Shown here: positions 30,391 to 63,321 of the stretch, piece after piece
How the letters are laid out: each line of letters begins with the position of its first letter
Position numbering within the stretch: the stretch's first letter is position 1
Assembly: GCF_000003815.2 (NCBI RefSeq)
Contig: NC_049979.1
Location: 25,767,978 to 25,831,977, forward strand
Source of the DNA: Branchiostoma floridae
Lineage: Eukaryota; Chordata; Leptocardii; Amphioxiformes; Branchiostomatidae
Direction of reading: 5' to 3'
DNA length: 64,000 nucleotides
Position numbers and translations under genes: made by a program
Notes under the pieces: generated by a model
Database searches by the model: none
What the model saw: only the letters and a program-made list of their open reading frames with translations
What the model was told of the DNA's origin: nothing

Positions 30391-30983
30391 TATGAAATTT
30401 TTTAACTCTAAATTCGTAATTATCCCAGTAATCACCAACCGCTGTCAGACCGTGACAAGCCTACAGGGACCATGCGGCACTTGGAACATATTTCTACACC
30501 AATTACGTGGATCGTTACCTCGCAGAAACTGATGGGCAGTTGAGGACCAATTACAAGGGTCGTAACGGCGTCGGTGGTCAAAAATACTGTAGTGATAACG
30601 CGGGAAACATGCAAATTGATGTCACGTCCTATTTGAAACGCTGTCATCATCCTCCTTCAAACAACTCATTCAGGATTTAAAAAAAAAATGACAGCTGACA
30701 AGTGTACGCCATCTGAGGAACCCAGCTCACCATCATACTGAGAATACGAAGCAAAAATGTGACAAATCGTGACTAAAAAAAACAAAAAAAAAGTGTAATC
30801 GGCAGCTTTGTTTCAAACCAAACGTCTGGTACACTGAGACTATAGCTAAGGACAGTGCAATGACGAACGCTGTGGGGTGTGGAGATGCGGGAAATTAAAT
30901 TGATAAAGCTGTTGTTGTCTATGGCGATGGGGTCACACTAGATTGATATCACCCAGACCCTCCCCTAACCGTCCTGTTCGCTA

Positions 30984-31380
30984 CGGCTACAGCAAGTGAA
31001 TTTTGTGGATGACATCAGCCTGATTTTTCGCCTGGTGTGCCCTCCAGACATGGTCAACATTACGAGGGGGTACCAAAATGGGAGAATATATCATGCAGTT
31101 AGCCTTGCTTGTACTTATAGAAGTGACACTAGTGAGAAACATGTAGTCATGACTGCAGTTGTTAACTTAGGAAATACTAGTCCACTGTTGTGTCACTTTG
31201 TGTAACTCTTGAATACAGAAATGAAAGACTTGTTGGATTTGAGACCACGCTTCAAGCCTTGTTTAATACAACGTTTATGGTGTCTGTCTTGAAAATCCTG
31301 ATATTCTTGTGTTGTTTCGCACTCTGTCACTAAATCTGGAGTCTGCAAAGATTTCAGCCATAAGATTTATTTAAGCCTAA
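30984..31380 (+). mobile_element. MITE family A, copy 5 (diverged)
   Basis: Left end GGCTACAGCAAGTGAATTTT then GTGGATGACATCAGCC, followed by the family interior (GTACCAAAATGGGAG, GAAGTGACACTAGTGAG). The right end is eroded to TTTCAGCCATAAGATTTATT. Confidence 0.65.
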
Positions 31381-31984
31381 CCTTCCACCATTGGAACAGG
31401 GCAATGATTGTTTTTGCAGCCCTTGAATATCTGAAGGGTAAACCACATAGGTTGATTAATTTCGCTGCGTTTGATTGGTCGTCGTCGTGGCATTCTATCA
31501 ACCAGGACAGCCTTGTATACAAGACAAGGTCACCACTGACACATCGGTTTCACGATTTAATCAACATTTTGAGACAGATACATGATGGGTGAGTTCCCAT
31601 GGGTTCTCGGGACAGGCAAGGTTTCGCTCGCTAGGGTCGAGACTTGCAGTTCTGTCGTAAACTGCAAGGTGGCGTCTCCAGATGGGCTGGAAGCGACTGC
31701 ATCCTCATTTCCTTTTTTTGCCTGCGACAGAAACATACGTAGATTTCCGTATTCGTGACAATAGCAAGCCATCTATCAAACAGCACTTATCTATACGAGA
31801 AAATACGCAATACAATTGATGTAATTCTTTTGCAGTCTATTATCCTTTTTCAAAGTACCCTTTCAGTCCATCTCGTGATATCACCATTCACAGTAGTTCC
31901 TGTGTAATATGTTCAGAACAAACGGTAACCCTTGAAACCATTGCTTTACATGAGTACGAATATGTTCTTATTCATTTGTATTGT

Positions 31985-32337
31985 AAGGCCATGCTGATTT
32001 GATTATATGGATGACACCCTCTGGGAACCCCAAAACTGGTGCGAGCGTGCGAATAAAAACAAGTTTGGCCAAAAAAAGTTGCATTCGATATGAAATCTAA
32101 GTGGTCAGGAAGGTGGAACAGATGACTAAACATGGTGAGTACGGTCTTGTTCTTTCACATATTCTTCTTTGACTCTGGAATTTTCTTTAGCATTCTATGA
32201 ACTTAGCATCCGTTATCCGATCTTTTTCCAAATTCATAGCTGCTTTAAATGATACGATTTACAGTATTGTTTTTGGAAACAGACACATATTAATGTGTGC
32301 GTGAATGTCATCCATATAATCAAATCAACATGGCCTA
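31985..32337. mobile_element. MITE family A relative abutting the peripherin stop codon
   Basis: Left end AAGGCCATGCTGATTTGATT then ATATGGATGACA. Right end TGTCATCCATAT then AATCAAATCAACATGGCC, giving inverted ends of about 32 bp. Outer GGCC and GATGACA blocks match family A, but the interior differs. Its right end lies about 30 bp from the stop codon of the minus-strand tetraspanin, so that gene's 3' UTR must run into it. Confidence 0.75.
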
Positions 32338-32366
32338 AGTACGGACTCGCAATGACATTAGATTTG

Positions 32367-44313: not shown

Positions 44314-45384
44314 TTAGGGTTCCCAGCTGCTCACTCTATCTTCTTCATTCATCACAGCCCAGTTTGGGGAGTGTGCATCAGAGGCAAGCCAGTTAAAATC
44401 ATCTATATCATCCCACGTGTTTCTATCCTTGTCTAGTCCAGCCTTCTTGTAGTGTTCTCCCATATCTGGATACGCCCAGTTATAAGGCGCAAAAAGAAGC
44501 CGGGTACTATCCTCTATGATCCCGCGGCTTGTGACATGCAGGTAGAAGCTTGTATCCAAGGTGTGGTGGACTCGTAGTTGCTGACAGGCTATCACCAACA
44601 CAGTGTCCTTACAATCGTCCACGAAGATAGACCTGGAGACGGGTCCGGTGAAGATACGGCATCCGGTTACGTTAGAGATGTGCACGGTGCCGGCGGAACC
44701 GTACAGTTTCACCGTACAGTTCGTCAGACGTGCGAGCGAGACGTCCTGGTTTTCGATCTCGCGTGGTTGTAAAGTCAGGGTTTGAGAGTCTTTATCAGCG
44801 AATCCACACTCTATCTGAACAACTGACGCCACCTGTACCCCGGGTTTTACTTCTGTGGCTACCTTAGTTGCTTTCTTCTTAGGCTCTTTCACTCCTTCCT
44901 TCTTTTTCTTGAAGGCGAATTTCTTCTTGGGGATGAGTTGCTCTCTCTTCTCGGTCAGGGCGGCCTGTAGGTTGCCGATCGTATCCTGCGCCTGGCGAAC
45001 GTCGTAACTCGGTAGAAAACTTGTAGAGTCCGTCACAAACTTCTGCAGTTTCTGCATGGCCGCCGTGATGACATCAAAATGATCGGAAAGGCCATCTTTA
45101 GGGGTGGAGTCTGACTCGTCGAGTAGCTTCTCTATGGCGGATTTCTCTTTCCGGAACGTAGTCGCGAAGAAGTCGGACGTTTCGTCTTCTGCCGACGTCT
45201 TTTCTTTCTCCAGACGCCTCTTCTCTCTCTTTTCTGCTAGCTCCTCCTCTCTCTTCTGTATCTTGTCCACCACTGCCCCTTTTTTCTCTTCGTAGAGAGA
45301 ATTCTCGGTGGTTTCCCATGTCTCGCCAACGATCACTACTTCTGATTCCGCCCAGGGGGAATTTGCATATATCCCATGATGCAC
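44314..45384 (-). CDS. TBCC: Tubulin-binding cofactor C (TBCC), GTPase-activating chaperone of tubulin folding
   Basis: A single open frame of 356 codons. TBCC stimulates GTP hydrolysis by beta-tubulin in the TBCC-TBCD-TBCE complex and releases folded alpha/beta dimers in the cytosol. Residues about 30-90 form the charged N-terminal coiled coil (KIQKREEELAEKREKRR, then DFFATTFRKEKSAIEKLL). Residues 117-160 match the spectrin-like region (LPSYDVRQAQDTIGNLQAAL, PKKKFAFK). The C-CAP/TBCC beta-helix spans about 200-345, with NCTVKLYGSAGT, ACQQLR (Arg271 is the expected arginine finger), FAPYNWAYP and DDFNWLASDAHSPNW. Size and single-exon form match human TBCC (346 aa). Odd point: the 5' boundary given is a GTG. 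There is no in-frame ATG between the upstream stop and Met110, so the true start needs a spliced 5' exon, a non-AUG codon or an assembly indel. Confidence 0.92.
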   Translation of the reverse strand: MHHGIYANSPWAESEVVIVGETWETTENSLYEEKKGAVVDKIQKREEELAEKREKRRLEKEKTSAEDETSDFFATTFRKEKSAIEKLLDESDSTPKDGLSDHFDVITAAMQKLQKFVTDSTSFLPSYDVRQAQDTIGNLQAALTEKREQLIPKKKFAFKKKKEGVKEPKKKATKVATEVKPGVQVASVVQIECGFADKDSQTLTLQPREIENQDVSLARLTNCTVKLYGSAGTVHISNVTGCRIFTGPVSRSIFVDDCKDTVLVIACQQLRVHHTLDTSFYLHVTSRGIIEDSTRLLFAPYNWAYPDMGEHYKKAGLDKDRNTWDDIDDFNWLASDAHSPNWAVMNEEDRVSSWEP

Positions 45385-45434
45385 CGCGGTCTCAACTATA
45401 TATACGCTCGAGCCGTGACGTCATCATTTGAAAA
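45385..45434. promoter_or_regulatory. Compact bidirectional promoter with full CRE and TATA-like tract
   Basis: Only 50 bp separate the extended TBCC frame from the ATG of the divergent gene. The interval holds TATATATA at about 45397-45404 and a perfect CRE, TGACGTCA, at 45416-45423. An octamer ATTTGCAT (45361-45368) lies just inside the TBCC side. TSS positions are unknown. Confidence 0.5.
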
Positions 45435-48201
45435 ATGGCGGGTTCCGGTGATGGTAGCATCCCGGGAGCTCCCGTAAACACAGTGTTTACGGTTGAACCA
45501 AAGCTGTTGCAGGACGCTCCAGAAGTTTTACTTTGCTGTGTAAACACTCACCAGTTCCCAATCCATTTCTCGGGGGTTTCGTGCATCGAAATAGTTACAC
45601 GGCGCTGTCACATAGCAGTACCGGGCGACCCGCCGTCAGTGCGCCGGCTGTGCTTGATGCCTGATCGGAACCTGGATAGCCTGTTCGCCGGGGTGACTTC
45701 CCCAGTGAAACTACGGATCAAGTCGAGTTCTACCATTCATGTAAGGTTTACTTTATTTCGTAGATCTTTTAGGGACCTTCAGTATTTTTGATGGTTCGAA
45801 ACAGGAATAATTTTACAGCAACAGAAAGGCTACGAATTATAGGGGGCATGTAACGTAACGTACAAATTTTATCGACTTTGTCATGTTTTCCAGTGGCACT
45901 ATATTCCTTTTTAACTCTGATTCAAATCGAGTTCTATTATAGTTTTATGTACTAGTATTTGATAGTTATTTCTTCATTTTACATCACCACCGGCGATTGT
46001 TTTGTTGTCGAGTATTTTCACAGAAAAAAGGTACAAAGTGATGTGGGACACATGTAATGTATTTTCAGCGTTGAGTCAGTAACGCTAACTTAATCGTTAA
46101 TGCTTTTCCTTTTGCTTCAAAATATTACTGGGTATTTGAATAGGATTGAAAAACGTGTATAATGTGAAAGGTAATTTTTCCCAGCCACTTTATTTGTAAA
46201 AATTATTTGCTGTCAATGGTTTTAGTTTTACATCATTTCAGTGTTTGGGTATTGGAAGGGGATAGTTTTTTTTTACTGAAGACTCGCTAGCAATATTCAA
46301 TTATCTTTTAAAAATACAAATACTAGAGTTTCACGACCCCATACCTTTGTCAAACAAATCTATCTTTACTAATAGTAGAAATCATGTCTGTCTGAGAATT
46401 GAGGCATTTACAAAAACTTGTTTCTCACTACAACCATTGTGGAATGGAACATGTTGTGAAGTATGTACATGTATAGGGTAGAAGCCCCCTTGTTAGGTAG
46501 CTTTAAATAATAATGCTTGGAACTTGGAGTTAAATAGAAATGGCTTTCTTTCAACACAATTGGTTAGCATAAAGTGTTGTGTTATAGTGACATATTGGTT
46601 GATTGCTGAATAAAAAGTTCTAAACAGAACTATGCGGCTCCAGCTGTGTCTCAGAGTCTGAAGGATGTTTGCAGTGTAACTGTAAGACTGTTGGCTTGAG
46701 GACCGGTAGTTCCCCCAGACAATGTTATTGCCGTAAGTTACTTAGTTTGCACGATAAAGGGATTCAGTGTGCATGGTTTTGCCCCAAGATTTGAGACCTT
46801 TGACCCATACTCGAAGGCCTAACATGTTAGCACCATGTGTGTGTTTCAACATATAGTTAGTGTGGTGTGACTGTGACAATCTTTAGAAATATTTACTAGT
46901 AGTTACTTTGCTACAATCTTTTTACTAGTTTTGGGATATTCTCTCTGTACGTTGTCCTTAATAACTGATATACGAATGAATGCTGTATACTCTCAACATT
47001 CAAAGGTCATAACTTAAAGAATGTGCATTACTTGAATTAGATTGTAGAAATCATCAAGTGGTAGTGGAAAGCCATTTGACTTGAAAAAGGTGTGTCACGG
47101 ATTTGGATAGCTACAGATTTTAGACGATGTGACGACAAGATCATGCGGTTTGCGATGCTGCTGTTTTCATTTCTTCTGCTGTTTGCGTTACAAAATATGT
47201 CAAGACATGTATCAATTAGCCATGCCCTCAGAAGTAGGACCTGGCTCTGCCCCCAGACAAGTGATGACGAAAAATCATGTTTTGGAATGGGTCACGTCTT
47301 GGAATGCAGCTGGCATTCAACTTCGTGTTAGTTCAAATCATGTTTTGGAATGGACAGAGTTTTGGAATGCAACAGGGTTAACAGTTACAGAACAATCATC
47401 TCCAAGCAGATTCTGCTTTTCTTACAGTTCGAATGCTCTAAAGATGCTGATAGGCAGCAGGCCAGAGGTACCCTTCTTTGGGACACAGAGATACTGCCAA
47501 CAGACAGTGCAGCCTTCATACTTCCAGCAGTGACGACAGATATCCCGGCTGACTTACCGTACGAGACAGACATTCAGCCTGTAGACCCCAATCTACCATA
47601 CCCTGACCATTGCAACTGTCAGATGTCTGAATCTGTACAGTCACCTCCAATACTTTGCGACATGCAAACAGAGTCACAACTAGACCCTCTTGTATGTAGC
47701 TTGGAGGACTTGCATTTTTCTTCAGATGGGGGGGAGTCGGATGACCAAGATCTAGATGCAGAGTTGGAAGAAGACGAAGACACAGATAACCATGCTGCAA
47801 ATCGTATGAGTGGGCAGATTTTTTCTGTTGTTGGCTCTACGTGGCATACTAGTTGTCAGGCTGTGCTAGATAAGTGTGAAAAACTGAGAAGGGAGGGAGA
47901 AGATGTCAAAGTCCAGGTAGCCTTTGAGCCCACCAATATCAAGGATAGGAATGCCATCGTGTTTGAAATGTTCATAGAAAACACTTGGCAGATAGTGGGT
48001 TATTGCCCAGGCCCCAAAGTCCCCAAACTGACAAGAGCAATGAGAAATGGTTTCATCACTGAGATTGCGATGCACAAGTTGACTCATTCCTTCTGCTTCC
48101 CTGCAAAGAAATTCATGTACAAAGTTCAGGTGAAGATTGTGAAGAGAGGGATTTGGGAAGGCGATGCAAAAGACTACAGGTTCAATTCGGTCATTGTATA
48201 A
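45435..48201 (+). CDS. Uncharacterised protein with C-terminal HIRAN-like domain
   Basis: Exon 1 is 45435-45740 (ATG overlaps the YY1-like ATGGCGG), ending IH|GTAAGG in phase 0. The last exon is 47428-48201, after CTTTTCTTACAG, in phase 0, ending TAA. A 54-nt internal exon at 46628-46681 also fits phase 0 at both ends, giving about 377 residues (359 without it). Exon 1 encodes a strand-rich, Cys-containing region with no domain I can name. The final exon has a long acidic linker (EEDEDTD) and a 131-residue C-terminal block with VQVAFEPTNIKDRNAIVFEM then WQIVGYCPGPKVPKL. The EPxNxxDxNAI...W..GYxP pattern resembles HIRAN domains (HLTF/Rad5 and stand-alone forms), which bind DNA ends, but similarity is partial. 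It shares its promoter with TBCC and converges on the large minus-strand gene ending at 49251. Confidence 0.6.
46628..46732 (+). other. Alternative reading of the internal exon: cysteine-rich frame
   Basis: Between an AAACAG acceptor and the strong donor ATTGCC|GTAAGT lie 105 nt. In one frame they encode a Cys-rich peptide with CGSSC, CLQCNCK and RQCYCRK, like CXC/Tesmin-type zinc-binding motifs. That frame is phase 1 at both ends and does not fit the phase-0 exons either side. The phase-0 frame uses an earlier donor (ACT|GTAAGA). Both cannot be right in one transcript. Confidence 0.3.
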
Positions 48202-48404
48202 AAAGTATAACGAGGCAACAACCCATCAACTCGATTTGATCTGTAGTTTTATTGGGAATTTTGTTACTCGCTTGTGCCTCCACTCTTAACTTTCTGCCCT
48301 GACTCACTATATTATTAGTGGAGGGCGATACCACATTGCGACTGCAAAAAAAAGTGGTCGCTGGTTGGATTAGGCAGTTGGTTGCTGGGAGAAAGGCAAA
48401 AACT

Positions 48405-48985
48405 GATATCTTATAAGGTCAGAACCCGTATAACACTTAGGACTATGTCTATACATGTTCTCCTCTTTCCTGACTTGCAACAAAATAACATCTTTTATGA
48501 GTATCATTGAGTAATAAAACTTAAGGTTCTGAAGAAAACAAAATCTGAAGAGCATGCCTCATAAGTTCAATAACTAGTTTGACAGTTACAATAACTAGTT
48601 ACAATAACTAGTATAACACTTGCAACAATGTATATACCTGAGTTCTCTTCTTTCTTGACTTGCAACAAAATAGCATCTTTTAAGTATACATTCAGCAATA
48701 AAACTAAAGGTTCTGAAGAAAACAATATCCGCAGTGCTTGCCTCATATATACAATAACTAGTTTGACAGAAGGATACTTCAAAGCATAACTAGGCAAAAA
48801 CCTGTATAACACTTGCGACAATGTCTATATATACCTGTGGTCTCAAGATCAAAAACTGATTGTCATATAAGGTCAATACCTGTATAACACTTGCAACAAT
48901 GTCTATACCCGAGTTCTCTTCTTTCCTCACTTACAACAAAATAGCATCTTTTACAAGTATACATATACAGAATAAAAAGTAAACA
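48405..48985. repeat. Diverged tandem repeat, about three copies, between convergent genes
   Basis: Landmarks TGTATAACACTTGCAACAAT, GAGTTCTCTTCTTTC, ACAAAATAGCATCTTTTA and GGTTCTGAAGAAAACAA recur in order from about 48420, 48610 and 48880, with spacing of roughly 190-270 bp. AATAAA (48513) in the first copy could serve as poly(A) signal for the plus-strand gene. Confidence 0.7.
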
Positions 48986-49250
48986 TACATAAAATAAAAG
49001 ACTTAGATATATACAACAGTGGTGACAGGTGGAAACAAGTGGCTACAGGCACTTTCTTCTGTAAAAAAACAAACAATGCTTGGTACCATGACTAAAAAGT
49101 ACATTTATATCAAAATCTCACTCATCAAAAAATCGGGCAAGTGGGGTAGGACATGAGCTTGCCCAATCAGCACTTTCACTTGGCTAGGACAATAAAACTT
49201 TTGGACTTGTCCAACCCTGGATGTGGATATAACAGTTTAAAAGTAATCTT

Positions 49251-52200
49251 CTAAACAGGTGGCAAGCTATTTGGGACCTCAGGCAGTGGCACTTCTGGTC
49301 TGTGCAGTATCTGCCTGATGGTCCCCCTGTTCCTGACCGGCAGGACACCCCTTGCAGTTGTGAAAATCGAAGCGTCTTCCCTTCTACAAGTGCGCAGTCG
49401 GTGGAGGCGCAGACGACCATCCTCAGGGTCATCATTGAAGGATGGGTAAGTGTCTTCTGCTTCCCTGAACCTCTCACTGATTGTCCAGTAGTAGAAAGGC
49501 AGGTCCGGGTCAATTCTCTTTGAGAATTCCCTGTGAAAGACAAATAAATAATTACAAACCTGTTCAAGTGAAATAATACATGCCATGGACACAAGAATTG
49601 TGCCCATACTGCCCATAATGACCTGTCCACAAGTGATTTGTAATGTACGTCGCAAGTACAATGTGAGTACATGAAATCTTTCAATAATTTTACAAAAAGA
49701 CCATACTGTAAATGTTTGAAAAGATAGTTAAATACCTGACTTCTGTAGGCCATCGAGCATGCAACTCCTTGAGGGTAAAGGTGTTTCCCATGTGTCGGTG
49801 AAGTCCAGCAAAGAAACACTCTACATCGTCTGTCGTGCTCGCTCTTGGATGCTCTTCATAGCCAATTGTCGCACTCTCACTTCTCCGCAGCTCCATTGAC
49901 TCGATATTTGTTGTGACCGCGATGAGGGTTTCTCGGCTCCACCCAAGTACTCCTCGACCGAACCTAAAAAAAGCGACCAGAACAAAGATATTCATTTCAC
50001 TGGGTCTTTAATCCATCTAGGCATTCTCGAGTTATACTATTTGGTAAAGCCCCTATCTCACTGGATTTGCAAGTTAAAGAGAGCGGTTACTGCATTTTTT
50101 ATATCTAATCATATTCATTGTGTAGGGTTTTCTTGCCTGTTGATGTCAAGAGTTGAGAAGTCTGGGGGGTAACGGCGCCATGGGGGGGAACGGTGATATG
50201 GCATCAGCTCATCAAGGATCATGTCCATCATGGCTGTGTTCTTCTCCTTCCTCTCTTCCTCTGAAAGCCCTCGGCCATCAGCTGCTTCATGCCATCCAGC
50301 AACGACTTTGATATAGCATGCTTCCCGGTGATACCCTCTGTGTCGGAGAAACCTGACCATGTTGTAGGACAGCAAGATCTCTGCATCGGTGACAGACTGC
50401 TTTCGGAAACCAAACAGGGCTGCCTCTGTTAGCCCTGGCTTGGGCTCACCATCTTGCGGATGGAGCGCTTCTTCGAGAGCATGGTGGTCAAACCACCGGG
50501 GAGGCTCTTTTCTGAGGTGACCAGCAATTCTCTTGAGGAGATGGCAATGATCTTCTCTTCTGTGAAGGTAGTTGAGGCCGTCTTTCTCTGGGACATACAT
50601 GTGGTGTGTGAAATCAACCCCCTCAGTTCGAAGTTCCTCTATTCTGAGACGGTATCTGTATGTGGCCATTATTGATCGCAGCATGTCAGCCATGCACTCA
50701 GGCGAGTTGGCACGGAAGGTTGAGGGGCCACAATCTGGGGGCACGAGTTGTCCACGCAGTCTTACTACAGCATCCTCCTCTCTCATCTGCTCCACTGTTG
50801 TGAGTTTGTGGTATTCTTCAATCACTTCTGGTGGGATAGCCTTCTCCCTCATCTCTGTCAATGGCATGCCATTGTCATCCTCTGCACAGTGAAACCACAA
50901 TCATCAATTAGTACAAACTGATGGGGAGTTCAGAGTCTATTGTGACATAAGCTGAACACATTTGGTTCGACAAGGGCAGAATTTGTGAGAAGATACAAGA
51001 TGGCTTCACCATATTCCCCCTGCAGAATATCCCTGAAATCAGGTGAATTTGTTGCATTGTAAGTGTACTTGGGCCAAAGATATATCACACGGATAAAACA
51101 TACTAATGTCAGTGGTACTGCACAGTCTGATATAATAGAGAGGCCAAACATTAAAGTCAAGTCAGCAGAGAAAGAAACTAACCTCCAACTTTCCGGAGTG
51201 ACTTCAGCACAGTGTCAGAAGCCATCCTCCTGACACTGTCTTTCACCCCACGAATGATTTCATAGAGATGAATAGGGCGCTTGTTCCCAAGCGTCCTTAG
51301 GGAGTTGAACTCTCCATCCGTAACATCACCTGACAACAAATCACAAAGCACCACATCACTGATAGATTTGCAAAATGAAAAAGCTCTAAATGGAAAATTA
51401 GCTTTGAGTACCTAAAAAAGCCCCCAGCGCACAGGCTCTAGGGCCAACCCACTAGCATTGCACCAGAATATACCAATGGTCAACACCTCAGCAAAGACTA
51501 CAGTCTACAAATGGACTTTATCATGAATTTTCGTTGAAATGTCTCAATAAAAAAGACAAATTTTCCTATAATGGATTTTGTTCAGCTTTGCATCATTCAA
51601 CAGAAGCACTGTCATATTACAAAAAACAGACAAGAGTAACACTCTACTTTTACTTTTGTGCTTTAACTTCAACTTTTGTCTTTACTATGTTTATAGTGGA
51701 GTTAAGCTTCACATGTAAAGGATAGACTCTTACCAACAGGTACCAGTCCCAGCTTCTTGGCCTCCTCATGGCACTTGTCCAGGAACTGCTGGAGGAACTG
51801 ATCCCGGATACTGTGATATGGAATGAGCAGGATTGGCACAGCATAGGGCTTCTGATTTCGTCTTTCGTCAGACACCAAAACGACCAATGCATGATCAGCA
51901 GCCACTCTCTTCTTCTTGAAGAGATTGTGCAAGTAGGTTTGTGTCTTTTCTCTCAGTTCCACCAGACATTGGGCCACACGGCCAGGTGAGGGGAAGCAGT
52001 TCCAAGAGCTGCCAGCAGCCTTTCATACCTACATAATATAGAAAGCATGTGCATGAAGGTAAAGGTAAAGCAGTCATCCTCAACTGATGTGAAGCATAAA
52101 TTGTGCTTTTTCAAGTAGCTCAGGTACATGTAGTTGTGCAATGCGGCTTTGCTAACTACTTGATTTATATAACTATGCAGACAGAAAATTGAAGTCAATA

Positions 52201-55200
52201 TTTCTAAAAGTCACCTTTCATAGAAGGCTTTGGCCTGCTCCAGAAGGGTATTGTACTCTACCCTGTCCCATGCCAGGTTTTTCAGCACATCTGTAGATGA
52301 GTTAGCCTGCTCGAATTTCTCCTTATACCTCTTGTTTGCTGCCTCAAGGCCACCTTTCAGCAGATCAATGTCTTCTCCAAGATCCTGAAGGAGACTGAGG
52401 AGACAGGCCTCTAGATTGCGTGGCACGCAGGACTTCCCAGCTTCCCTGACAAGGACCATGCGTCTGTCGTTGTCAGCCCTTAGCTTCTCCAGGCTTCCAT
52501 CCCCAAGATCAACGTCTCCAGCCCATTTGCCCTTTGTAGATGTCTGCAGGGCAACCTTCAAATCACAAGCATCAGCCTTAAACCAGACACGTGCTCCTGG
52601 CTTCATCTTGGCAAAGGATTCCAGTGCAGCGATCTGTATATAACAGAACAAACTTTACTGTATACTAATCTGATATGCATAAAATAGTAAAAGTTTTCCC
52701 AACGTCCATGTCTATTCTTTAGTAGTGTGTCTACCAAATGAAGCTCAATAATTTCCATTCATAGACATCACAAGGAGCAGAACTGCTGATACTAGTAGTA
52801 TTATTGCCAAGAAGAGAATGCCTCTGGAACAATTTTTCTCTTTTTTTTGAAGGTTTGCAAACTCACATGGATACTGGAGTTGCCATCAAACTTCTCATTC
52901 TGTGCCAGTCTGTACATGGTGTCCAGGGAGGGGGCGGCGACATTAATATGTGCCTGTCAGAGAAGGAAGAGAATCATATGTCAAATAAGACATGACAAGT
53001 AAAAAAAAAATAGACAAAAATTACACAGTAACAGAACAAGATGTACTTTCTTCAAATGCACAGTATTTAAGTGCCCCTAATTCTTTCACAATTCATGTTA
53101 TCATACTACTCAAGGTAAATATCACTCTGAGCCAGCCTCCTTAGTACTGTACTAACTTAGGGAATCTACTGGAATAACCAAGATAAAAGCTCCTTGGAAT
53201 AACTAAGTATGTCAAATACATACAAAATGGAATTGAAAAGGTATCGCTATTATGGCAAATATTCAGATACTACATTAAGTATATGGACTGGTTATCATCA
53301 CAATTGAAAATTTGTGAAACATAAAAGCCATCTTTATACATGTAGTAACCTTCAATGGGTCCAAGTCAGTGCTTTCCAGGCCACTCCACCCTGGCCCCCG
53401 AAACAGCCTCAAGAACCTGGTTGGAAACTCAGCACACATGCTCTCCAACCAGCTGGCATAATCTGGAGAAATGCTGACCTACAGAACATACATGAGTACC
53501 ATTGTATAAATTAATACCATAACAAGTTGGACATAACACTGTCTCTTGCTATGAAGTCTGCAATCTTCATCATATCTGATATCACCATAGATAATTTGTT
53601 CACACCCTCCTACCACAATGAACAAAGTTCCTGATCACACTTCTAATTGCCCAACACTACATGGCTTGGGGCCTGGCTAATTGCACAGGAAGATGGTAGC
53701 AAAAATGAATTGGGGTTTTTGGAAAACCCTGTCCAGTCCAGACAGGGAAATGGGGCGGAAAACCCTGTCCAGTCTGAAAAGAGGGTCTGCATAGGGGTTC
53801 CTGGCAATGCTTAAAAGTATTGCTTCAGACAGCACTTACACAGCATAATGAGTGACCCAAAGGTGCAATATGCATGCACACAAAGTCAGTTCTGTCAAAT
53901 GCAAAGTACCCAATTAACACTTATCTGGTAGGACATGAGGGGAGAGAATTGTCAATCAAACAATGGATAGTGAGTGTCCGTCAATTTCGGGTTGTTAAAT
54001 AATGGCAATACATTACAAAGACAGGCTTTGAAAGGTTTTCTTTAAATGATAAGTGCGCAGCACTCATTTTGAGAGCTGGTCTGTTTAAATCCTGGTTTAA
54101 TAGAATGACTGCGAATGGTTTCAATATCAACACGACTTTAGTACACAATGTTATAACATTACAATATATTTTACAATGCACTACAATAAAGCCGAGATGG
54201 CATTTTTCAAACGATAGTACAAGTTGTGAGCTATATAGAACTATGTATCCTTTTAAAAATAATGTGTTTTATTTGCAAAATTATGCCGTAAGGCTAATAG
54301 CATGTTCAGTCTCAAAGACTTAAAGAGTAGACGTTTTTTATATGATGAGAAGTAACAATGATGGATGATTTTTGTTAAGTAATAATTTTTTTATGACATT
54401 GTGCCACACTTCAAGTTGATGTTATTTCTGTGCTTAGCCGTATTAAAGATAAAAAAAAATGTTGTTGTATACTAGTACTTAGTAGCTTACACCGTATACC
54501 CCCATGCAGACCCTCTTTTCAGACAGCTTACAATGTATACCCCCATGCAGACCCTCTTTTCAGACTGGACAGGGTTTTCCGCACTCCGGACTGGACATGT
54601 TTTTCCGAAAACCCAAATGAATTGAGGTAATTAGTTACAAAATTAGACAAAACTAGCCAAAACAACAAACAAAAAACTAAGAAGGCATTCTTTACTGGAA
54701 ATGCCATCATTTTAAATTAGTACATCAGATAAGTATCTTTATATACTGATGCTAACCTGATGTACATTGGTGGCACTGAAGAACTCCATCTGGTATTGTA
54801 GTAATCCAAATGGCATCCTGTCAATTTGGAGCAGAGGGGTGGAGGTGCCAGGCCTGTTGGTGCTCAAGATGTGGGCAAACTTGTACAGGATGTTGGGCTT
54901 GTTGTGTTCTTGTAGGGTGGACATGGCATTGATGGACTTTGAAAAGAAGTCGGTTGGGTATGTGGAAATATTCTTTGCTGTAGCTACAACTGAGAACAGT
55001 TTATCACCAAAGGATAGAACTGAAGATGATTGAACGATTTGAGGAAGCAGCATAAGCATGAAAGAATCAAATTCTGATTGGGTCAGGGCCTTGCAAGAAG
55101 ACAGTACTGTTGTGACATCATCCTGGCAGCTATGTTCAGTTTGTGTTTGCTGGTCCACAGTCAACTTCTTTGTCTGGCATCCCCTGCTGACTGTTTCTTT

Positions 55201-56294
55201 GGTTTTCTTTGCACGGCTGATTGAATTCGTCTCAAGACCAAAAGACTTCACAGCAGCTTCAAGGGATTCGTCGAATTTCGTCCTCCACTTCCTGCACCTG
55301 TTCCTCACTGTGTTTGCTGTGAATAGAAAGAGAAACAGTGTGTCACTTAAGAGAAACCTTTGCTATTGACAAAGTATGACTTCATATCCCAACACCTTGA
55401 GGGACTACACTCACACTAAATGTGAGAAATAATAGAACTTCTTTTGATTTCTATCAGTTCTAAACTTGTTGCAATAATCTATCAAGGTAAAGACAGCAAG
55501 AGCCATTGTTTTTCACTGACCTGAAAGAAGTTCACTGCTCCTGGTTGCCGTCTTGATTGATGTTGCAGCCTCTGTCCAAAAGGGACTGTTAGCGTGCCTC
55601 ATTGGCCAGGATGCTGTGTCAGTGACATTTTCATCCTGATCAAGGTGGCTTAGATCCAAAAACTGGATCAATGCCTTGTCCTCCTTATCAGTCCACTGAT
55701 GGTGTTTCACAGGCCGAGGGGACTTGGCCAGTTGAATCTTTGGGGTGAGCATGTGCCCCAAAGATCGTGTTATCTGTTGCAAATACAGGATACATGTAAT
55801 TTGTAGCAAGGAGAAACTATAGCAAAGTTTGCTATAGTTTAACTGGTACTGAGTGTCATCATCAGTCTTGGCTCACCAATCTTACTCGACTTCTGAATAG
55901 TTTCTGCAAGGAGTCATGATGTAATAAACATACTATGAAATTACATCACATCAGTGCACTATGAAATAACATCACATTAGTGAAATAATTGTATTAATGG
56001 TATAATTGACAACAGTAAAACTGTCCTTAGCCTGTAAGGTCATCAGTGAAACCTAACAATTTGTAAATTTGCTACATCCTGTTGGACCATACCACAACAG
56101 CCAATGATGATCTTGATCGAGGAAACATTTTCTGTCTTATGGCAATTAATCACCTTAGGACTTAGGAAAGAGAGAGGTCGGCGAGCTCCTCCATCTTTCT
56201 TTCCATGTTTGTGCTGCCTCCTCTTCCCAGACGGGGTGTGACCACTCCCGCCAACATGTGGCCTCTTTTGGGGCGTTGATGGAGTTGACATCAT
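49251..56294 (-). CDS. Large Myb/SANT-like protein with RNase-H-like core, candidate domesticated transposase
   Basis: Eleven exons, high to low: 56154-56296 (ATG at 56294), 55521-55773, 54757-55316, 53350-53478, 52867-52953, 52215-52633, 51734-52008, 51183-51329, 50137-50881, 49736-49963, 49251-49530. Every junction keeps phase, giving 1,087 residues. The start is the first of two tandem ATGs just after an acceptor, so a noncoding 5' exon is expected. Residues 1-47 are basic and Ser/Pro-rich. A Myb/SANT-like domain spans the exon 2/3 junction ([38 protein letters not shown]). Residues about 570-640 read [20 protein letters not shown], a helix ([18 protein letters not shown]), then [13 protein letters not shown]. 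That strand-helix-strand with Asp578 and Asp626 is what I would expect of an RNase-H-fold transposase; I could not place a third acidic residue. The C-terminal third ([20 protein letters not shown]) is unassigned. The exon 9/10 intron uses a GC donor (CAG|GCAAGA). Confidence 0.7.
53713..54614. mobile_element. Non-autonomous DNA transposon, 902 bp, with 10-bp target duplication
   Basis: Inverted ends of about 95 bp: GGGTTTTTGGAAAACCCTGT on the left, and TGTTTTTCCGAAAACCC at the right end. Both continue inward through CTGTCCAGTC and AAAAGAGGGTCTGCAT(A/G)GGG or complement. AAATGAATTG flanks it exactly at 53703-53712 and 54615-54624. Long inverted ends and a 9-10-bp duplication suggest a Mutator-like origin. 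The interior is AT-rich without a transposase. It sits in intron 3 of the Myb/SANT gene. Confidence 0.88.
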
Positions 56295-57179
56295 GACTGA
56301 GGGAAACAATATTGGACAGTCTAAGATGATTTTTACCCTTTTATAGAATATATTTCCTTGAGGTATTTCAATGAAGTTATTGATGACACTTTGCTCACTT
56401 TGGGAGAATGAGACACAGTTATTGAACATGTCAATAAAGAACCAAAATTAAAGCAAAATGTACCTTTAACATTACAATTTAGGATAATTTTCTATCTATG
56501 GATGTCCCATAAGATATAAACTGGTCTGGTATGCAATTTTTTTCTGTTTCATTGGCAAGGATTAAAAACTCTCGAAAATAAACTATGATATTCATAAACA
56601 TCACTGCTAACCTGGGGAATCAACAATAATCCATAAATTACAAATCTTACACACCACTGCACCACTTGATAACTTACAAATTCTGACAGACTCTCAAATT
56701 ATGAAACTGAAAGACTACAACTACTTTTTGACAAGATTTATTGGTCCAAATATCAACGACAGTACGTATATGACAGTGAAGGTGAAAATGTAGATCAGAC
56801 TCCTTCGTATAACTCACAAGCAAGCCTAACCAGTCAATAATGACAAGATAGGTAAACAAGTTCTACGGCTATGTGATCCCGAGCGACCGTCTGTTTAGCG
56901 AATATTAAGCCCACAAACGCCCACCCTTGAAAAGTCTGTGCTACATAAATCTAGTTCTTTTGCAAGTACAGTAATACGTTCAGGTTGGGCTCTCATGAGT
57001 TTCAAGTGAATTCATCGACCCGAAGTACGAAAATCCATCTTGGTAACTTCCGCCTTTGCGACATATACGATACCCACTCACCTCCGCATTTTAAGCGAGT
57101 TTCCAGTCCAACCAACAACATTTTCCGTTTGAATAGGTTTTCCCTGAATGTCTGCTAAGTCCCCATACTGTAACAATCT

Positions 57180-57320
57180 TTCCAAACTTTCTAAATTGCT
57201 TTAGGAAGGTAAAACTACGGCGCGTTCGTGTTTGTTTACGTGTCCGCCATCTTTTCTTTACCGGCTTATTTGCATATGTTAATGAGTTTAAAGGGCCTCC
57301 GCGCGACTGTCAGGCGTATG
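57180..57320 (-). promoter_or_regulatory. Probable promoter of the Myb/SANT gene
   Basis: A local rise in CpG (GGCGCGTTCG, CCGCGCG) around CCGCCATCTTTTC at about 57246-57258, which is a YY1-type site. It lies about 0.9 kb upstream of the first coding exon on the minus strand, consistent with a noncoding 5' exon near 56.3-57.2 kb. A second CpG-rich patch with CCGCCATTTTGG at 57720-57830 may serve the plus-strand sulfatase gene or a separate start. Confidence 0.4.
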
Positions 57321-58331
57321 TAAACACGACCAACCATGCGATCCTGCGCGGCTGTTTTCGTGATCTTCCTATGAGTGCTTTTTGGTGCTTTTCGTTTTTT
57401 TAGACACACAATCAATCTACCATACGTAAACTACACTTTTTTTTAAAAAGCACCACTATTTGATTAACCAATGCGGAAGATTTGATAGCACTATATGCAA
57501 ATCTCCAACATGCGACAACGGGATTTACGCATGAGAAGTCTATCGGCATTTACCTCAAAATTAAACATGTTCCTCGGGTATCACACACATCAACACTTTT
57601 CATGGAAAACTACAATTCCCGAACTCTAAAAAATGACGAAAATTACCCACCTAATTCTCTTGGCTGCTGTCCAACATGGCCAACATCTTGAAGATGCCCA
57701 TGCCCTACATCTTGGGCTTTGCAGTTCCGGGTTTGCCGGCGTTCGCGCGGAAAATCGAACGCGATCGAAAGTAAAGTGCATCATGGGATATATGCAAATC
57801 CCCCCTTGGATTCCGCCATTTTGGTTTTGAATACGGAGCATGCGCAGTGGGGGTTAATAGGTTAACAGGTTAAAGGTCAGGTTTGTATTGAAGTGACTCA
57901 GCTGCTCACAGATTACTAGTGCTCTATATTTAACCCTGATTAGACCAAAACAACGTTGATTTACATGACTCACATAATAGATGTGACCTGGGAGACAGCA
58001 GAGGGTCTGCATGGGGGGATCCTGGAAAAGCTCTGGAGGCTGGCAAAGCTTAACCGGTGGATTCAAGAGCACCAACAACGTTTTAACCCTAACCTCCTTG
58101 CTTTAGCGACCAGTTTACTTGTTTTGGAACTTGGGCTTTTGGAAACGAGTTAATGCAGGATTGTTTCAGTGTATTCGTGTGGTGAACGCAACCGCAGGCA
58201 CTTACGGCCGTGACTTTGGGTAATCATTGTGTTTGGCCAATTACTTTTCACAAACGATTCGACAAAGCTTAACGTTGAATTAGAGCAAGCAAGATACAGT
58301 AAATCAAAATAGCTTGCTAGTTGCACCTCTC
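57321..58331. other. Intergenic and 5' region of the arylsulfatase gene
   Basis: CpG-richer DNA at 57660-57840 with YY1-like GCCAT motifs; otherwise no exon with a recognisable product. The GAGGGTCTGCATGGGG motif near 58002 matches the inner end of the 902-bp transposon at 53713-54614. Confidence 0.45.
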
Positions 58332-61300
58332 ATGGAAAAAGGCATGCAAACCCTGAAACTACTACTGCTGTTTCTGTTGCATCATGGGATAAAAGGGAAG
58401 CTCAAGAGCAACAAGGATGGAGTTGAAGCCATCGTCACCATCCCTGCCCAACCTAACATCATCCTCCTGGTGGCTGACGACATGGGGTGGGGGGATCTGT
58501 GCAGTTACGGCCATCCTACCCAGGAGTGCGGTGAGATAGACAAGATGGTGGCGGAGGGGATGCGCTTCACGCAGTGGTACAGCGCAGACTCACTGTGCTC
58601 CCCTAGCAGGGCAGCGTTATTGACAGGTGGGATTGTCTCCATAGGAGTAATATTTCATATTTCTGTTCTCTTCCTGGTGAATTCTCCTGCTTAATTGTTG
58701 AGTCTGATTTCAAAGTATGCATTTCATATGGCAACCGTAACATTTGCCATTATTAGTTATATTTGGTATTTATTGAACTTACTGACAATTTATTGAAAAT
58801 GACGACAATATGCCGTGATACAAAATTAAAGTCATTTGGTCCAAATATGAAAGAGTGGATCCATTTCACAATAAGGGCAGGAGGAGGCGATGCATCATTA
58901 AAAATAAAAGGTATTAAAAAACAACGGATATAGGTTACCCTGCAGATAAAGGTGAAGTAGTCATGATATGTTCAATGCAAGAGTGAATTCTAGTCTTAAT
59001 TTGCCTCCCATCTTAGGTCGGCTTCCCATCCGTGTTGGTGTATGGGGTGGAGAGAGAGTTTTTGCAAACGATGGCAGCGGAGGCCTGCCTAAGAACGAGA
59101 CAACCATCGCTGAGGTGCTAAAGGATGCTGGGTACGCCACGGGCATGGTCGGCAAGTGGCATCTAGGTTCGTCCTGATATATTCTCTGGTGCTGATCTTC
59201 TAGTATTTGTGACATATACATTCAAACCTTTTGGTGGTTATGCCAGTTGATGAGCGAAATAAGGAATGGGTTGTAGAGCACTCGTTTGATGACAACAGGC
59301 CCTCCCGCTAGTGGGCGGAGGGCTTGTCTGGTGTTGGAACACCTGTTCAAACGAGAGCTTGAACCAATTCCTTACTTTGCTCATTTGTAGGGACCAATCA
59401 GCGCCTGCGTCCAAAATTTGGACGATTGCAGACGTTATTCATTGTCAGGGTTCCCACAACTTCCCAGACGGTATAATATTATTAGTGTACAATAAATGTC
59501 AGTGAGAAGCGGCTATATATAGTATATAATGAATGCTGGAGCGAACTACTTTCCAGATAGTACCCAGAGTAGTTATGATAATAATTATATACTGCACCTT
59601 GCCGTAATTTCACAATCTTACCATGACTTAAGATTGAAAGTCACGGATTCTACTTTTTTTACAAAATAAATGGATGTCTGCATTGTGCATACCTCAGGAA
59701 TCAGTGATGGTGCATTTTAGTAGATCTCTTCAAATTCACATTCAATGTGGCTGTCCTCTATGTACCCAGCAGAATACTGTATGAGGATTAATGTTATGTT
59801 ATTTTGTAAAAGTCTACTTATAAGTAGAGTATAATCAAAATTTGTTTTTTCCTCTGGATGATCATAATTATGTTACTTTTGCATTATGGTTTTTATCCAA
59901 TGCTGTTCTTAAGTCCAGTTCAGTTCGGTTCATCCTTAGAGAGGTGATACTATTCTAAAAGCTCACTAATATTAAAGTAGACAGCAAGACTGTATTGATG
60001 TTAAGTTGAGAGAAAGTTGATACTTATGCCATGGCTAAAATCTCATACACAGGTTCCTTATTAAGATATTGACAGTTAAATTACAGTTGTGTTATATCAT
60101 ATTCCACAGGTATTAATGAGTTTTTACCTGGTGACGGAAGACACCTGCCTCACCACCACGGGTTTGACTTTGTCGGAACCAACCTTCCATTTACCAACCA
60201 CTGGGCTTGCGACGAATCCAAGGTTTTCTGCAAAATAATTACTAAATACTATTTTACCTGTGGCCTTTTGATTCAATTGGCACCAATCTGGCAAAAGGCC
60301 AAACCATCTTTTCTTTCATGTCAATATTATAAATCATGTTTGTCACATATGCTAGACTATGTTACATGTTCGCTCTAGCCCTGCTGATACAAAATACGGC
60401 AGTTTGAAGGCACTGTCTGTTGGGTTAAGAATGACCATATTCTTTTTTAGGGGGTGACCTTAAGTTTATTCTGCAACTATTATCTTGCCGCTGATTACCT
60501 TTTGTACTACCCTGGGTACCATTTGGATAGTAGTTCGTTCCTATGTTTGCTTCTGCTATCCGTCTGGAGAACTGCACATTCAAGCTTCTTGGTGGTGATA
60601 CCTTGCCCACATCCGCAAGGATGCGGAGGGCTTTTCCGGTGTTGGAACACCTGTTCAAACGAGCGCTTGAACCCTTTCCATAACTTGTTCGTGTAGGGAC
60701 CAATCAGTGCCTGAGTCCAAAATTCCAGGCGTTCAGATTCTCAGACGGAACAGCAGAGAAGTGACTGCATATAGTGTATAATGAACGTCAGAGCTAGAAG
60801 CAACTGTATATAGTATATATAATAAACGCCGGAGCGAACTACTTTCCAGATGGTACCCAGGCTACATTTGAACAGTAAAAGTTGTTGAAGATGATTTGGT
60901 GTATATTATCAGTCATTTTCTTTATTGTCTTTGTGTAGGTTCACCTGGCTCACCCTAACCCCATAAAGTGTTTCCTGTACTGGAACGCCACGCTGGTCCA
61001 ACAGCCCTTCAGACACGACAACCTGACGGCCTCCTTCCTACAGGACTCCGTAGCCTTCATACACAGCAACAAGGACACGCCCTTCTTCTTGTACCTCTCC
61101 TTTGCTCACATGCACACTGACATGTTCTCTGCACCCAGGTTTAGGGAGACATCGAGGAGAGGTAGGGGCGAACATTCTTACACACTTTCTTGTAATGCCA
61201 GTTCACCTTTATCCACGGGTAACTTACATGTATATCAGCTATATTTATAAACGGGATATTTAGGGATCTATCAAGTACTTGGACAGTGGTGCCAACATTC

Positions 61301-63321
61301 AATAGTTTCAAAACATTTGAAACCAACGTCCATCGACCTGATATCCCTGAATTTCTGATAAAAAGTTGAAAATATGTGCAGGTAGTCCTAATGTCACCAG
61401 AGATCAATGTTTAACCCAACTCAGACAGCGGTTGTGTGCCATTCATTACTGTAAATGTACTTTTAAGTTTGCGGGGATTCAATTATGTGGTAGCGGTTAA
61501 AAGGACTTTTTGTTGTGGTTTTCAGTTCGCAGTAGCACCATATGCATGCACTGTAGTCTTTTACTGCCATGGAAAATGTTTGCAGTGTTTTTGAGATCGC
61601 AATGAAACAGCCACCGCAAAAACCGCGAACATTAAACCTCCGCAAAAGTTTCTGCATTTTACAGTACATCATTTTCATTGTTTCACGCTGTTACCAAATG
61701 GATAACAGAAGCTGAAGCAGGTGTTGATTAAGGGTTAATAATCCGCCCTGATTCACAGTCGGTTCCTATAACCTGAGGGTACGAACACTACTTGGTTTAT
61801 GGACACTACTGGGGGTACACTTAAACACTACTGGGGGTATGGACACTACTGGGGGTACGGCCACTGCTGGGGGTACGGACACTACTGGGGTACGGACACT
61901 ACTGGGGGTACGGACACTACTGGGGTACGGACACTACTGGGGGTGCGGACACTACTGGGGGTACGGACACTACTGGGGGTACGGACACTACTGCGGGTAC
62001 GGACACTACTGGGGGTGCGGACACTACTGGGGGTACGGACACTACTGGGGGTACGGACACTACTGGGGGTGCGGACACTACTGGGGGTACGGACACTACT
62101 GCGGGTACGGACACTACTGCGGGTACGGACACTACTGGGGGTACGGACACCATTGGGTTGAATACTATGGGGCAGTGGGCGGTAACGGTTGACACCGGAT
62201 AAGTATTTTCTAAAAGTATTTCTTGGTTCCCTTCTGTTGTTAAGTCCACCCCAGAATTGTGATAGCTCACATGATGAATTACTGACAAGACGGGGGTGTT
62301 CGATATCATATACCTTGTATTTAACTTTTGTCTGTGGCTGTTGCAAGAAGATGAAATCTCATGCCTTATGCTACACCGATTTCTAATCTTTACCCCAGGT
62401 AGATATGGGGATGGCCTACGTGAGCTGGACTGGGCTGTAGGAGAGGTGCTGAAAACACTCGTCAGTCTGCAGATCCAGCACAGAACCCTGGTGATCTTCC
62501 TGTCGGATCACGGGGGGCATCTTGAGATCTGCACAGAGGGGGGATCAAATGGGATACTCAAAGGTACACTTTCTTATCAACATAGCATCACTTTGTCTGT
62601 GTCTTTTCTTTGGTCTTGAATCTTTGAAAAGGCTTAATTTCGTTTCGTAACCACTACTGCTGTTGTACGTTTCGCAGGTGGCAAGGCATCCACATGGGAC
62701 GGAGGGTTGCGTGTCCCTGGAATAGCCTGGTGGCCAGGTGTTGTTGCACCTGGGCAGGTGTCCCAGCACCTGGTCAGCTCCATGGACGTGTTCCAGACAG
62801 CTGCTGAGCTGGCAGGTGTGACTCCGCCGAAGGATCGCATCTATGACGGGAAAAGCCTGGTTCCAATTTTGCTCGAAAAGGCGCCGGCTGTTCCAACAAG
62901 TAAATTACCTCCCTCTCCGCGAACCCTGTTTCACTACTGCTCTGATAGACTGATGGCTGTTAGGTACGGGGAGTACAAAGCACATTTCTACTCAATGGAG
63001 CTGCCTACTAATTATACAGAACACTGTCCAAGTGGTGTGCCAAAAGTAGAGTACTACACATCATTTGATTGTTACGGACCTCACATCACGCATCATGAAC
63101 CACCCCTACTCTACAACATAGATAGAGATCCTGGAGAACTTTATCCTCTGCCTGTAGGACAATATGATGAAGTTATAGCAAATATACTTGCAGCAAAACT
63201 TCAGCATCAAGCCAGTTTAGTGCCTGGAAAGGCCCAGTGCAAAGAGACATCTACAACATTACAACCCTGCTGTAACCCTCCCTTTTGTTATTGTAATTAC
63301 AAGCCAGCAAGTCATAGATGA
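58332..63321 (+). CDS. Arylsulfatase of the steroid-sulfatase/ARSD-E-H type, without membrane hairpin
   Basis: Six exons in phase: 58332-58626, 59017-59166, 60110-60222, 60939-61161, 62399-62563, 62678-63321; 529 residues. The chosen ATG precedes a signal peptide; Met5 ([15 protein letters not shown]) is an equally good start. Sulfatases hydrolyse sulfate esters with formylglycine made from Cys in C-x-P-x-R: here CSPSR at 89-93. Other active-site parts are present: VADDMGWGD (metal), [22 protein letters not shown] (metal) and [15 protein letters not shown]. The second half ([56 protein letters not shown]) matches steroid sulfatase and its X-linked paralogues more than ARSA. Exon 3 ([10 protein letters not shown]) joins exon 4 ([10 protein letters not shown]) directly, where STS has a two-helix membrane hairpin. 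I therefore infer a soluble luminal, lysosomal or secreted enzyme. Several N-x-S/T sites are present. Substrate cannot be told. Confidence 0.92.
59222..59580 (+). repeat. Dispersed element in sulfatase intron 2, copy 1
   Basis: Shares with 60582-60870, in order: GGAGGGCTT, GGTGTTGGAACACCTGTTCA, TAGGGACCAATCAG, GCGAACTACTTTCCAGAT and GGTACCCAG-like ends. Short internal inverted motifs (CTCGTTTGA / TCAAACGAG) suggest a MITE or SINE. It contains no gene. Confidence 0.7.
60582..60870 (+). repeat. Dispersed element in sulfatase intron 3, copy 2
   Basis: Second copy of the 59222-59580 element with the same landmark order and many substitutions. It accounts for part of an 80-codon hydrophobic frame here, which is therefore not a membrane exon of the sulfatase. 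Confidence 0.7.
61796..62160 (+). repeat. 18-bp minisatellite, ~20 copies, in sulfatase intron 4
   Basis: Unit GGACACTACTGGGGGTAC repeated about 20 times with point variants (GCGGGTAC, GGGGTGC) and occasional one-base deletions. Since 18 is divisible by 3, several frames stay open on both strands (VRTLLG on plus, SSVRTP or VVSVPP on minus) without implying coding. Confidence 0.95.

What the first reader, a model, noticed from the sequence alone, without database searches (positions are those of the whole stretch)
49251..56294. Eleven-exon gene joining a Myb/SANT-like domain to an RNase-H-like core: candidate domesticated transposase
All ten introns keep the reading frame over 3.26 kb of coding sequence, which decayed transposons do not do. 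The N-terminal third has a Trp-based Myb/SANT-like motif. The middle has a strand carrying D (VSDE), a helix, then a strand carrying D ([10 protein letters not shown]), the expected start of a DDE/D RNase-H fold. No flanking inverted repeats or target duplication were noticed around the gene. I infer an old transposase now serving the host, or an undescribed nuclease-like family.
Basis: partly seen in the sequence, partly recalled or inferred. Interest (0 to 1): 0.75.

Follow-up and report, generated by a model that had tools for sequence, protein, structure and literature searches.

The report
Recently mobile two-gene DNA transposon
The eleven-exon gene is not a tamed host gene but the enzyme gene of a 12.5-kb jumping DNA element with near-identical copies elsewhere in the genome; this copy landed in a tubulin-folding gene and cut off its start codon, and its proteins resemble known transposon proteins so faintly that it may be an undescribed type.

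Summary
The exons are real, but the reading is wrong on two points. (1) Inverted ends and a target duplication exist. The gene lies in a 12,456-bp element (45353-57808) with 32/33-nt terminal inverted repeats and a 9-bp duplication GATTCCGCC; it splits host gene TBCC at codon 4. (2) The genome holds six near-full-length copies, 98.4-99.95% identical where aligned. Five of six have perfect 9-bp duplications, as does a 758-bp internally deleted copy. The transposase frame is open (1,094 aa) in four of six copies. A second, convergent gene encodes a protein with a C-terminal HIRAN domain and keeps its place in two divergent relatives. The transposase has no Pfam match above cut-off; weak hits point to a P-element-like RNase H core and Myb-like N-terminus. 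Ends, duplication length, transposase and HIRAN partner fit no superfamily I could test, so it may be an undescribed lineage. Repbase could not be checked.

The parts
45353..57808 (.). Whole transposon, 12,456 bp, no N
   Evidence: near-full-length copies
45344..45352 (+). Left copy of 9-bp target-site duplication GATTCCGCC
57809..57817 (+). Right copy of 9-bp target-site duplication GATTCCGCC
45353..45384 (+). Left terminal inverted repeat (CAGGGGGAATTTGCATATATCCCATGATGCAC)
   Evidence: the 23-nt core has 22 exact hits in the genome (2 of them in the window), backwards control 0
57776..57808 (-). Right terminal inverted repeat (CAAGGGGGGATTTGCATATATCCCATGATGCAC)
49251..56294 (-).
57651..57775 (-). 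Inferred 5' non-coding exon just inside the right end (donor AG|GTGGGTAA; a matching acceptor lies 2 nt before the ATG at 56294)
   Evidence: sequence only; not tested by RNA
45435..45740 (+). Second gene, exon 1 (ATG 82 bp inside the left end)
   Evidence: 71% and 74% identical open homologues in copy C15 and relative C233
47428..48201 (+). Second gene, exon 2; C-terminal HIRAN-like domain (359-aa protein in all)
53713..54614 (.). Small inverted-repeat element nested in intron 3, 10-bp direct repeat AAATGAATTG; aligned through in the five other near-full-length copies
44317..45352 (-). Host gene TBCC, most of the coding sequence
   Evidence: Pfam TBCC 2.7e-40, TBCC_N 5.8e-32
57809..57819 (-). 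Host TBCC start codon and following bases (ATGGCGGAATC), cut off from the rest by the insertion

Best explanation
A cut-and-paste DNA transposon with two convergent genes, read inward from its two ends. The minus-strand gene encodes the transposase: a Myb-like N-terminal DNA-binding region, then an RNase-H-like catalytic core (proposed D411, D626, E967 in the 1,087-aa numbering) interrupted by a probably helical stretch between the first strands and by a large insertion before E967. Its likely action is to bind the 32/33-nt ends, cut them, and join the 3' ends to target DNA 9 bp apart, giving the 9-bp duplication. The plus-strand gene encodes a HIRAN-domain protein, which probably binds the single-stranded or 3' DNA ends formed on excision or gap repair. 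Shown: the element boundaries, duplications, copies, one deletion derivative, the conserved two-gene order, and the disruption of TBCC in this assembly. Inferred: the catalytic residues, the chemistry, the transcription and the role of the HIRAN protein. The family moved recently, but this copy is probably not self-sufficient because its transposase exon 7 is frameshifted (or mis-assembled).
For: Inverted ends abut a perfect 9-bp direct repeat; removing the element (flanks joined in a script) gives MAESEVVIVGETW... in frame with a complete 346-aa frame, whose domains score TBCC 2.7e-40 and TBCC_N 5.8e-32. Six near-full-length copies including the window's, 98.35-99.95% identical over aligned blocks. 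Perfect 9-bp duplications at five of six; the sixth (C9) has none and borders an assembly gap. A 758-bp deleted copy carries both ends (100% over 68 bp, 99.9% over 692 bp) and a 9-bp duplication. The end core has 22 exact genome hits, control 0; 18 of the 20 outside the window were looked at and all 18 sit in element ends. Transposase frame open to the end in 4 of 6 copies. The HIRAN gene lies convergent 3' of the transposase in copy C15 (a diverged version) and in relatives C233 and C1:31.7 Mb; HIRAN passes the Pfam cut-off in the last (1.8e-5, 24.9 against 24.7 bits). Nei-Gojobori dN/dS against C233: 0.157 (868 codons) and 0.206 (357 codons). In alignment A1, D411 (3 rows), D577 (4), D626 (5), EDHxH (6) and E967 (4) are kept in every row that covers them.
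Against: No Pfam, PHROGs or PDB sequence match for the whole protein at E<=10. The RNase-H call rests on sub-threshold hits to TNP-like_RNaseH_N: 0.18 for a window fragment, 0.0061 for a construct from which I removed the stretch between the first strands, 0.011 for a second such construct whose best stretch did not reach back to D411, 0.10 and 0.005 for two natural relatives. Other families that are surely chance score alike: pPIWI_RE_REase 0.014 on the first construct, NleF_casp_inhib 0.0087 on a relative. In the window's second gene DUF6691 (0.0078) scores better than HIRAN (0.016). A profile of six relatives finds nothing relevant in the PDB. D577 is as conserved as D411. Broken relatives outside A1 depart from these motifs (L045, L046). 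In the window alone, 4 of 77 exact inverted pairs have an 8-bp or longer direct repeat near their ends within the offsets allowed, so that single observation is not unique. C9 lacks a duplication. No expression or transposition data.
Confidence: 0.93

Rival explanations
1. Domesticated transposase serving the host.
For: A long multi-exon gene beside host genes; low dN/dS against a relative, which active transposons can show as well.
Against: Six near-identical copies with inverted ends, five of six with target duplications, and a deleted derivative. The window copy is frameshifted. The insertion splits a host gene.
Confidence: 0.02
2. Member of an established superfamily of the hAT/P/MuDR group, most likely a far-diverged P-like or Mutator-like element, with the HIRAN gene a later acquisition. 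(This is a rival to the 'new superfamily' reading, not to the transposon reading.)
For: TNP-like_RNaseH_N hits; C/DxxH-type motif at D781; the 9-bp duplication fits Mutator (8-11 bp, PMC6446971 passages).
Against: P elements make 8-bp duplications and carry THAP (PMC7776569 passages); no THAP, MULE or hAT family in the lists at E<=10 (HMMER's filters drop most hits above 0.1). Spacing D411-D626 is 215 residues against 73 between D230 and D303 of the fly P transposase (PMC8230255 passages).
Confidence: 0.45
3. The two genes are unrelated neighbours that happen to lie inside the same inverted ends.
For: The second gene diverges far more than the transposase in copy C15 (53-71% protein identity against about 98% DNA identity for most of the rest).
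Against: Same convergent order in C233 and C1:31.7 Mb, whose second genes are 50-74% and 34% identical to the window's (in the latter only the C-terminal domain was found).
Confidence: 0.05

Closest known systems
P element / THAP9 (P superfamily)
   Same: Short TIRs (31 bp in P; PMC7776569 passages), RNase-H core with an insertion domain before the last Glu (PMC8230255 passages), weak TNP-like_RNaseH_N match; introns (recalled)
   Different: 9-bp not 8-bp duplication; no THAP domain found; Myb-like N-terminus; about 120 extra residues between the first and second core strands; second HIRAN gene
Mutator-like elements (MuDR/MULE)
   Same: 9-bp duplication; extra ORFs known in some (PMC6446971 passages)
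   Different: TIRs 32/33 nt rather than commonly hundreds; no MULE family match in Pfam
hAT
   Same: Termini of CAGGG type and a large insertion between second Asp and Glu (both recalled)
   Different: Duplication 9 bp rather than 5-8 (PMC12730594 passages); no hAT family match in Pfam
Zisupton / KDZ
   Same: Large eukaryotic DNA transposons (recalled); 5'-CA..TG-3' termini in Kyakuja
   Different: Zisupton 8 bp, Kyakuja 7 bp without TIRs (PMC12730594 passages); sequences not compared here
PIF/Harbinger
   Same: Two genes and a Myb/SANT domain in groups such as Nuwa (PMC12730594 passages)
   Different: There Myb/SANT is a separate protein and duplications are 0-3 bp; here a Myb-like region is fused to the transposase

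Membership tests
Cut-and-paste TIR DNA transposon | Terminal inverted repeats at both ends of an intact copy | tested here: met
   6 of 6 near-full-length copies
Cut-and-paste TIR DNA transposon | Fixed-length target-site duplication | tested here: met
   9 bp in 5 of 6 near-full-length loci (two of them only at the outermost ends of composites) and in the short derivative; C9 none, beside an assembly gap
Cut-and-paste TIR DNA transposon | Multiple dispersed near-identical copies | tested here: met
Cut-and-paste TIR DNA transposon | DDE/D RNase-H transposase | tested here: inconclusive
   conserved acids in a plausible order but only sub-threshold RNase-H matches
P superfamily | 8-bp duplication | tested here: not met
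   9 bp
P superfamily | N-terminal THAP domain | tested here: not met
   no Pfam THAP hit listed at E<=10
P superfamily | TNP-like RNase-H domain above cut-off | tested here: not met
   best 17.6 bits, cut-off 24.6
Mutator | 8-11-bp duplication | tested here: met
   9 bp
Mutator | MULE transposase domain | tested here: not met
   no Pfam match listed at E<=10
hAT | hAT transposase/dimerisation domain | tested here: not met
   no Pfam match listed at E<=10
Zisupton/KDZ | Transposase sequence similarity | not tested
   no named KDZ sequences were at hand to compare
HIRAN domain (second gene) | Pfam HIRAN above gathering score | tested here: inconclusive
   met in the C1:31.7 Mb relative (24.9 bits, cut-off 24.7); not met in the window copy itself (15.4) or C15 (16.2)
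Domesticated transposase | No transposon ends, single or few conserved host copies | tested here: not met

The most novel reading that the evidence does not exclude
An undescribed superfamily of animal DNA transposons: a Myb-like fusion transposase with a P/hAT-like but highly expanded RNase-H core, 9-bp duplications, CA[A/G]GGG ends, and a regular partner protein carrying a HIRAN domain that handles 3' DNA ends during excision, integration or repair.
Probability: 0.4. Interest if true: 0.65.

Novelty: new variant of a known kind. Interest (0 to 1): 0.5.

Why it matters
It shows that a candidate 'domesticated' gene is a young mobile element whose insertion split a host gene for tubulin folding. 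If the lineage is undescribed, current family libraries miss its transposase (no Pfam match for the whole protein at E<=10), so such genes would be annotated as uncharacterised host proteins. A transposon that brings its own HIRAN protein would make it testable whether mobile DNA supplies its own end-processing or fork-remodelling factor.

Tried and rejected
Domestication: rejected. Promoter motif: I first thought the 23-nt core a shared promoter element, because it lies just upstream of both genes; rejected once it proved to abut a 9-bp duplication and 18 of 18 genomic hits examined outside the window (of 20) sat in element ends. VSDE as first catalytic Asp: kept as possible; D411 preferred because TNP-like_RNaseH_N aligns from D411 once the intervening stretch is removed (0.0061; the second part alone 0.11; four controls with other N-parts: none, 0.20, 0.082, 0.23). 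A second construct with longer margins scored 0.011 with a best stretch that did not include D411, and the constructs were my choice, so this is weak support. Prokaryote, viral and PHROGs searches found nothing, as expected for an animal element. Fold prediction of the HIRAN region and exon 6 gave pLDDT 45 and 43 without an alignment; a PDB fold search of the former gave nothing credible. A profile-to-PDB search gave chance hits only. Papers: 'HIRAN domain' with transposon and transposase returned 2 papers, unrelated by their titles and abstract starts; the listings for 9-bp TSD and Branchiostoma terms showed nothing recognisable as this element; Repbase itself is not held. Whether an intact TBCC or an empty allele exists elsewhere in the assembly was asked and never answered.
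Full report
What is there. The minus-strand gene at 49251-56294 is real: eleven exons join into 1,087 codons, with one GC-AG intron. Coding GC by codon position is 0.55/0.42/0.55, and introns are 36% GC. The window lies in a 513-Mb assembly of 431 contigs.

The element. A 34-nt inverted pair at 45351-45384 and 57776-57809 was 94% complementary. Trimmed to the abutting direct repeat, the element is 45353-57808, 12,456 bp. It has ends CAGGGGGAATTTGCATATATCCCATGATGCAC and CAAGGGGGGATTTGCATATATCCCATGATGCAC and a perfect 9-bp duplication GATTCCGCC. Joining the flanks gives one open frame, MAESEVVIVGETWETTENS..., 346 aa. The same frame as it stands in the window is tubulin-binding cofactor C by Pfam (TBCC 2.7e-40, TBCC_N 5.8e-32). 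The insertion therefore lies in codon 4 of TBCC and separates its ATG from the rest. As a control, of 77 exact inverted pairs of at least 14 nt in the window, 4 have an 8-bp or longer direct repeat within the offsets allowed. So the ends alone would not prove the case; the TBCC restoration and the other copies do.

Copies. A 786-bp query from exon 9 found nine matches (the tool calls such counts lower bounds): the window, five further full-length matches at 99-100%, one partial copy in two pieces (C168), and one 69% relative (C233). The five others are near-full-length elements of 12,386 (C9), 12,454 (C7a), 12,454 (C7b), 11,860 (C15) and 12,210 bp (C2) with exact end cores at both ends; C168 showed one end in the stretch fetched. 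Pairwise identity over aligned blocks (longer than 300 columns, gaps not counted) ranges from 98.35 to 99.95%; C15 aligns over about 9.8 kb only, because its second-gene region is diverged. The window copy is 99.80% and 99.82% identical to C7a and C7b. Duplications of exactly 9 bp flank the window copy, C7a and C7b (TAGCAGGTG, ATCGTGGCC). C2 and C15 show none at their inner ends, but their outermost ends, 17,401 and 15,594 bp apart, have GGACTGACC and TATTAGGGC; these are composites with an additional internal end. C9 shows none and borders an assembly gap. The 23-nt end core occurs 22 times exactly, two in the window, and its backwards control 0 times; I looked at 18 of the 20 others and all 18 continue as element ends. 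One pair on contig C7 at 16.605 Mb bounds a 758-bp internally deleted copy (68 bp of one end at 100%, 692 bp of the other at 99.9%) with 9-bp duplication GGGCCGTAC. This is the signature of recent mobility, including mobilisation in trans.

The transposase frame. Another AG lies 20 nt upstream, more pyrimidine-rich by my own count, and is identical in all seven copies printed. With it, C9, C7a, C7b and C15 are open to codon 1,094, while the window copy stops at codon 555 and C2 at 76. Exon 7 is 295 nt in the window and 296 in C7a, C7b, C2 and C168 (C9 and C15 were not matched by the donor string used there). So four of six near-full-length copies keep an open transposase frame, and the window copy carries a frameshift or an assembly error.

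Protein architecture. No family matched the whole protein. The exon 7-8 fragment gave TNP-like_RNaseH_N, the P-element/THAP9-type core, at 0.18. Two natural relatives gave 0.005 (C10) and 0.10 (C1:31.7 Mb), and two shorter or different pieces of relatives gave no such hit; all are below the curated cut-off, and unrelated families score alike in the same lists (NleF_casp_inhib 0.0087). Removing the stretch between D411 and the second strand raised the window match to 0.0061 with the alignment starting at D411; a longer variant gave 0.011 without reaching D411, and controls gave 0.08-0.23 or nothing. Divergent relatives in the same genome (44-71% identical to the first row of A1) keep D411, D414, D577, E578, D626, the EDHxH at 780-784 and E967 in every row that covers them (row 1 is a composite); some broken relatives do not. 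In the P superfamily D1 lies on strand 1, D2 on or after strand 4 and Glu in helix 4, after an insertion domain (PMC8230255 passages). [quoted passage not shown] the window protein has four C/DxxH strings, of which D781 is the one in the invariant EDHxH. I therefore propose D411/D626/E967 (1,087-aa numbering), with D577 as an alternative for the first. A low-confidence exon-6 model puts D411 just after a strand (pLDDT 43). The Myb-like N-terminus scores 0.33 in the window and 0.021 in C233.

The second gene. Two exons, 45435-45740 and 47428-48201, encode 359 aa. Its frame is open in the window, C9, C7a and C7b, and in C2 (one codon fewer as placed). C15 carries a divergent open version (71% and 53% identical over the two exons, plus a further fragment), as does C233 (74% and 50%). 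In C1:31.7 Mb only the C-terminal domain was found, 34% identical and convergent, and it passes the Pfam HIRAN cut-off narrowly (24.9 against 24.7 bits, 1.8e-5). In the window copy HIRAN scores 0.016 and another family, DUF6691, 0.0078. HIRAN of HLTF binds single-stranded DNA and fork junctions and is reported to recognise 3' ends (PMC4666394 passages). Hence the proposed role at exposed 3' ends, which is inference.

Selection. Nei-Gojobori dN/dS between window and C233 is 0.157 for the transposase (868 codons) and 0.206 for the second gene (357 codons). It is 0.176 for the second gene against C15 (358 codons). Blocks with stops in the subject were dropped, dS is 1.5-1.7 (near saturation), and two other comparisons were saturated. 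Among near-identical copies it is 0.63 (C2, 631 codons) and 0.58 (C15, 608 codons), probably inflated by the frameshift region.

Filing. It is a cut-and-paste TIR transposon by the structural tests run; the catalytic fold itself remains unproven. It is not shown to belong to P (9-bp duplication, no THAP found), hAT or Mutator (no domain match), though Mutator's duplication length fits (PMC6446971 passages). KDZ and Repbase comparisons were not made. I rate it a new variant, possibly a new superfamily. Claims about what is in print rest on the searches only, of which I saw listings, and on the passages named from PMC8230255, PMC12730594, PMC4455052, PMC9587614, PMC7776569, PMC6446971 and PMC4666394.

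Noticed in passing
window 53713-54614: A 902-bp inverted-repeat element with a 10-bp direct repeat AAATGAATTG nested in intron 3, aligned through in the five other near-full-length copies; a stretch resembling its subterminal part lies at 58000-58032.
   Followed up: partly
window 28286-36795 (also 28180-36890): Another far-apart inverted pair (27 nt exact) with a 9-bp direct repeat GAAATAGGT near its ends; could be another large element or chance.
   Followed up: no
C2:20998749-21016149 and C15:14923235-14938828: Two copies are composites with an extra internal transposon end and a 9-bp duplication only at the outermost ends, as if nested or fused elements had moved together.
   Followed up: partly
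C15 copy, element positions about 1-3000: The HIRAN gene region is strongly diverged (53-71% protein identity) while most of the rest is about 98% identical, suggesting exchange of the partner-gene half between element lineages.
   Followed up: partly
window 58284-63321: Arylsulfatase-like pieces (Sulfatase, Sulfatase_C) with an 18-bp tandem repeat array at 61773-62150.
   Followed up: no
window 37362-38130: Long CTACT-type pentanucleotide array near a tetraspanin-like stretch at about 35.9-36.3 kb (just below cut-off).
   Followed up: no
contig C6, 19.7 and 25.6-27.7 Mb: Ten of the 25 protein matches lie on contig C6, nine of them within about 25.6-27.7 Mb, five of the ten with stops inside: a cluster of decayed relatives.
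   Followed up: no
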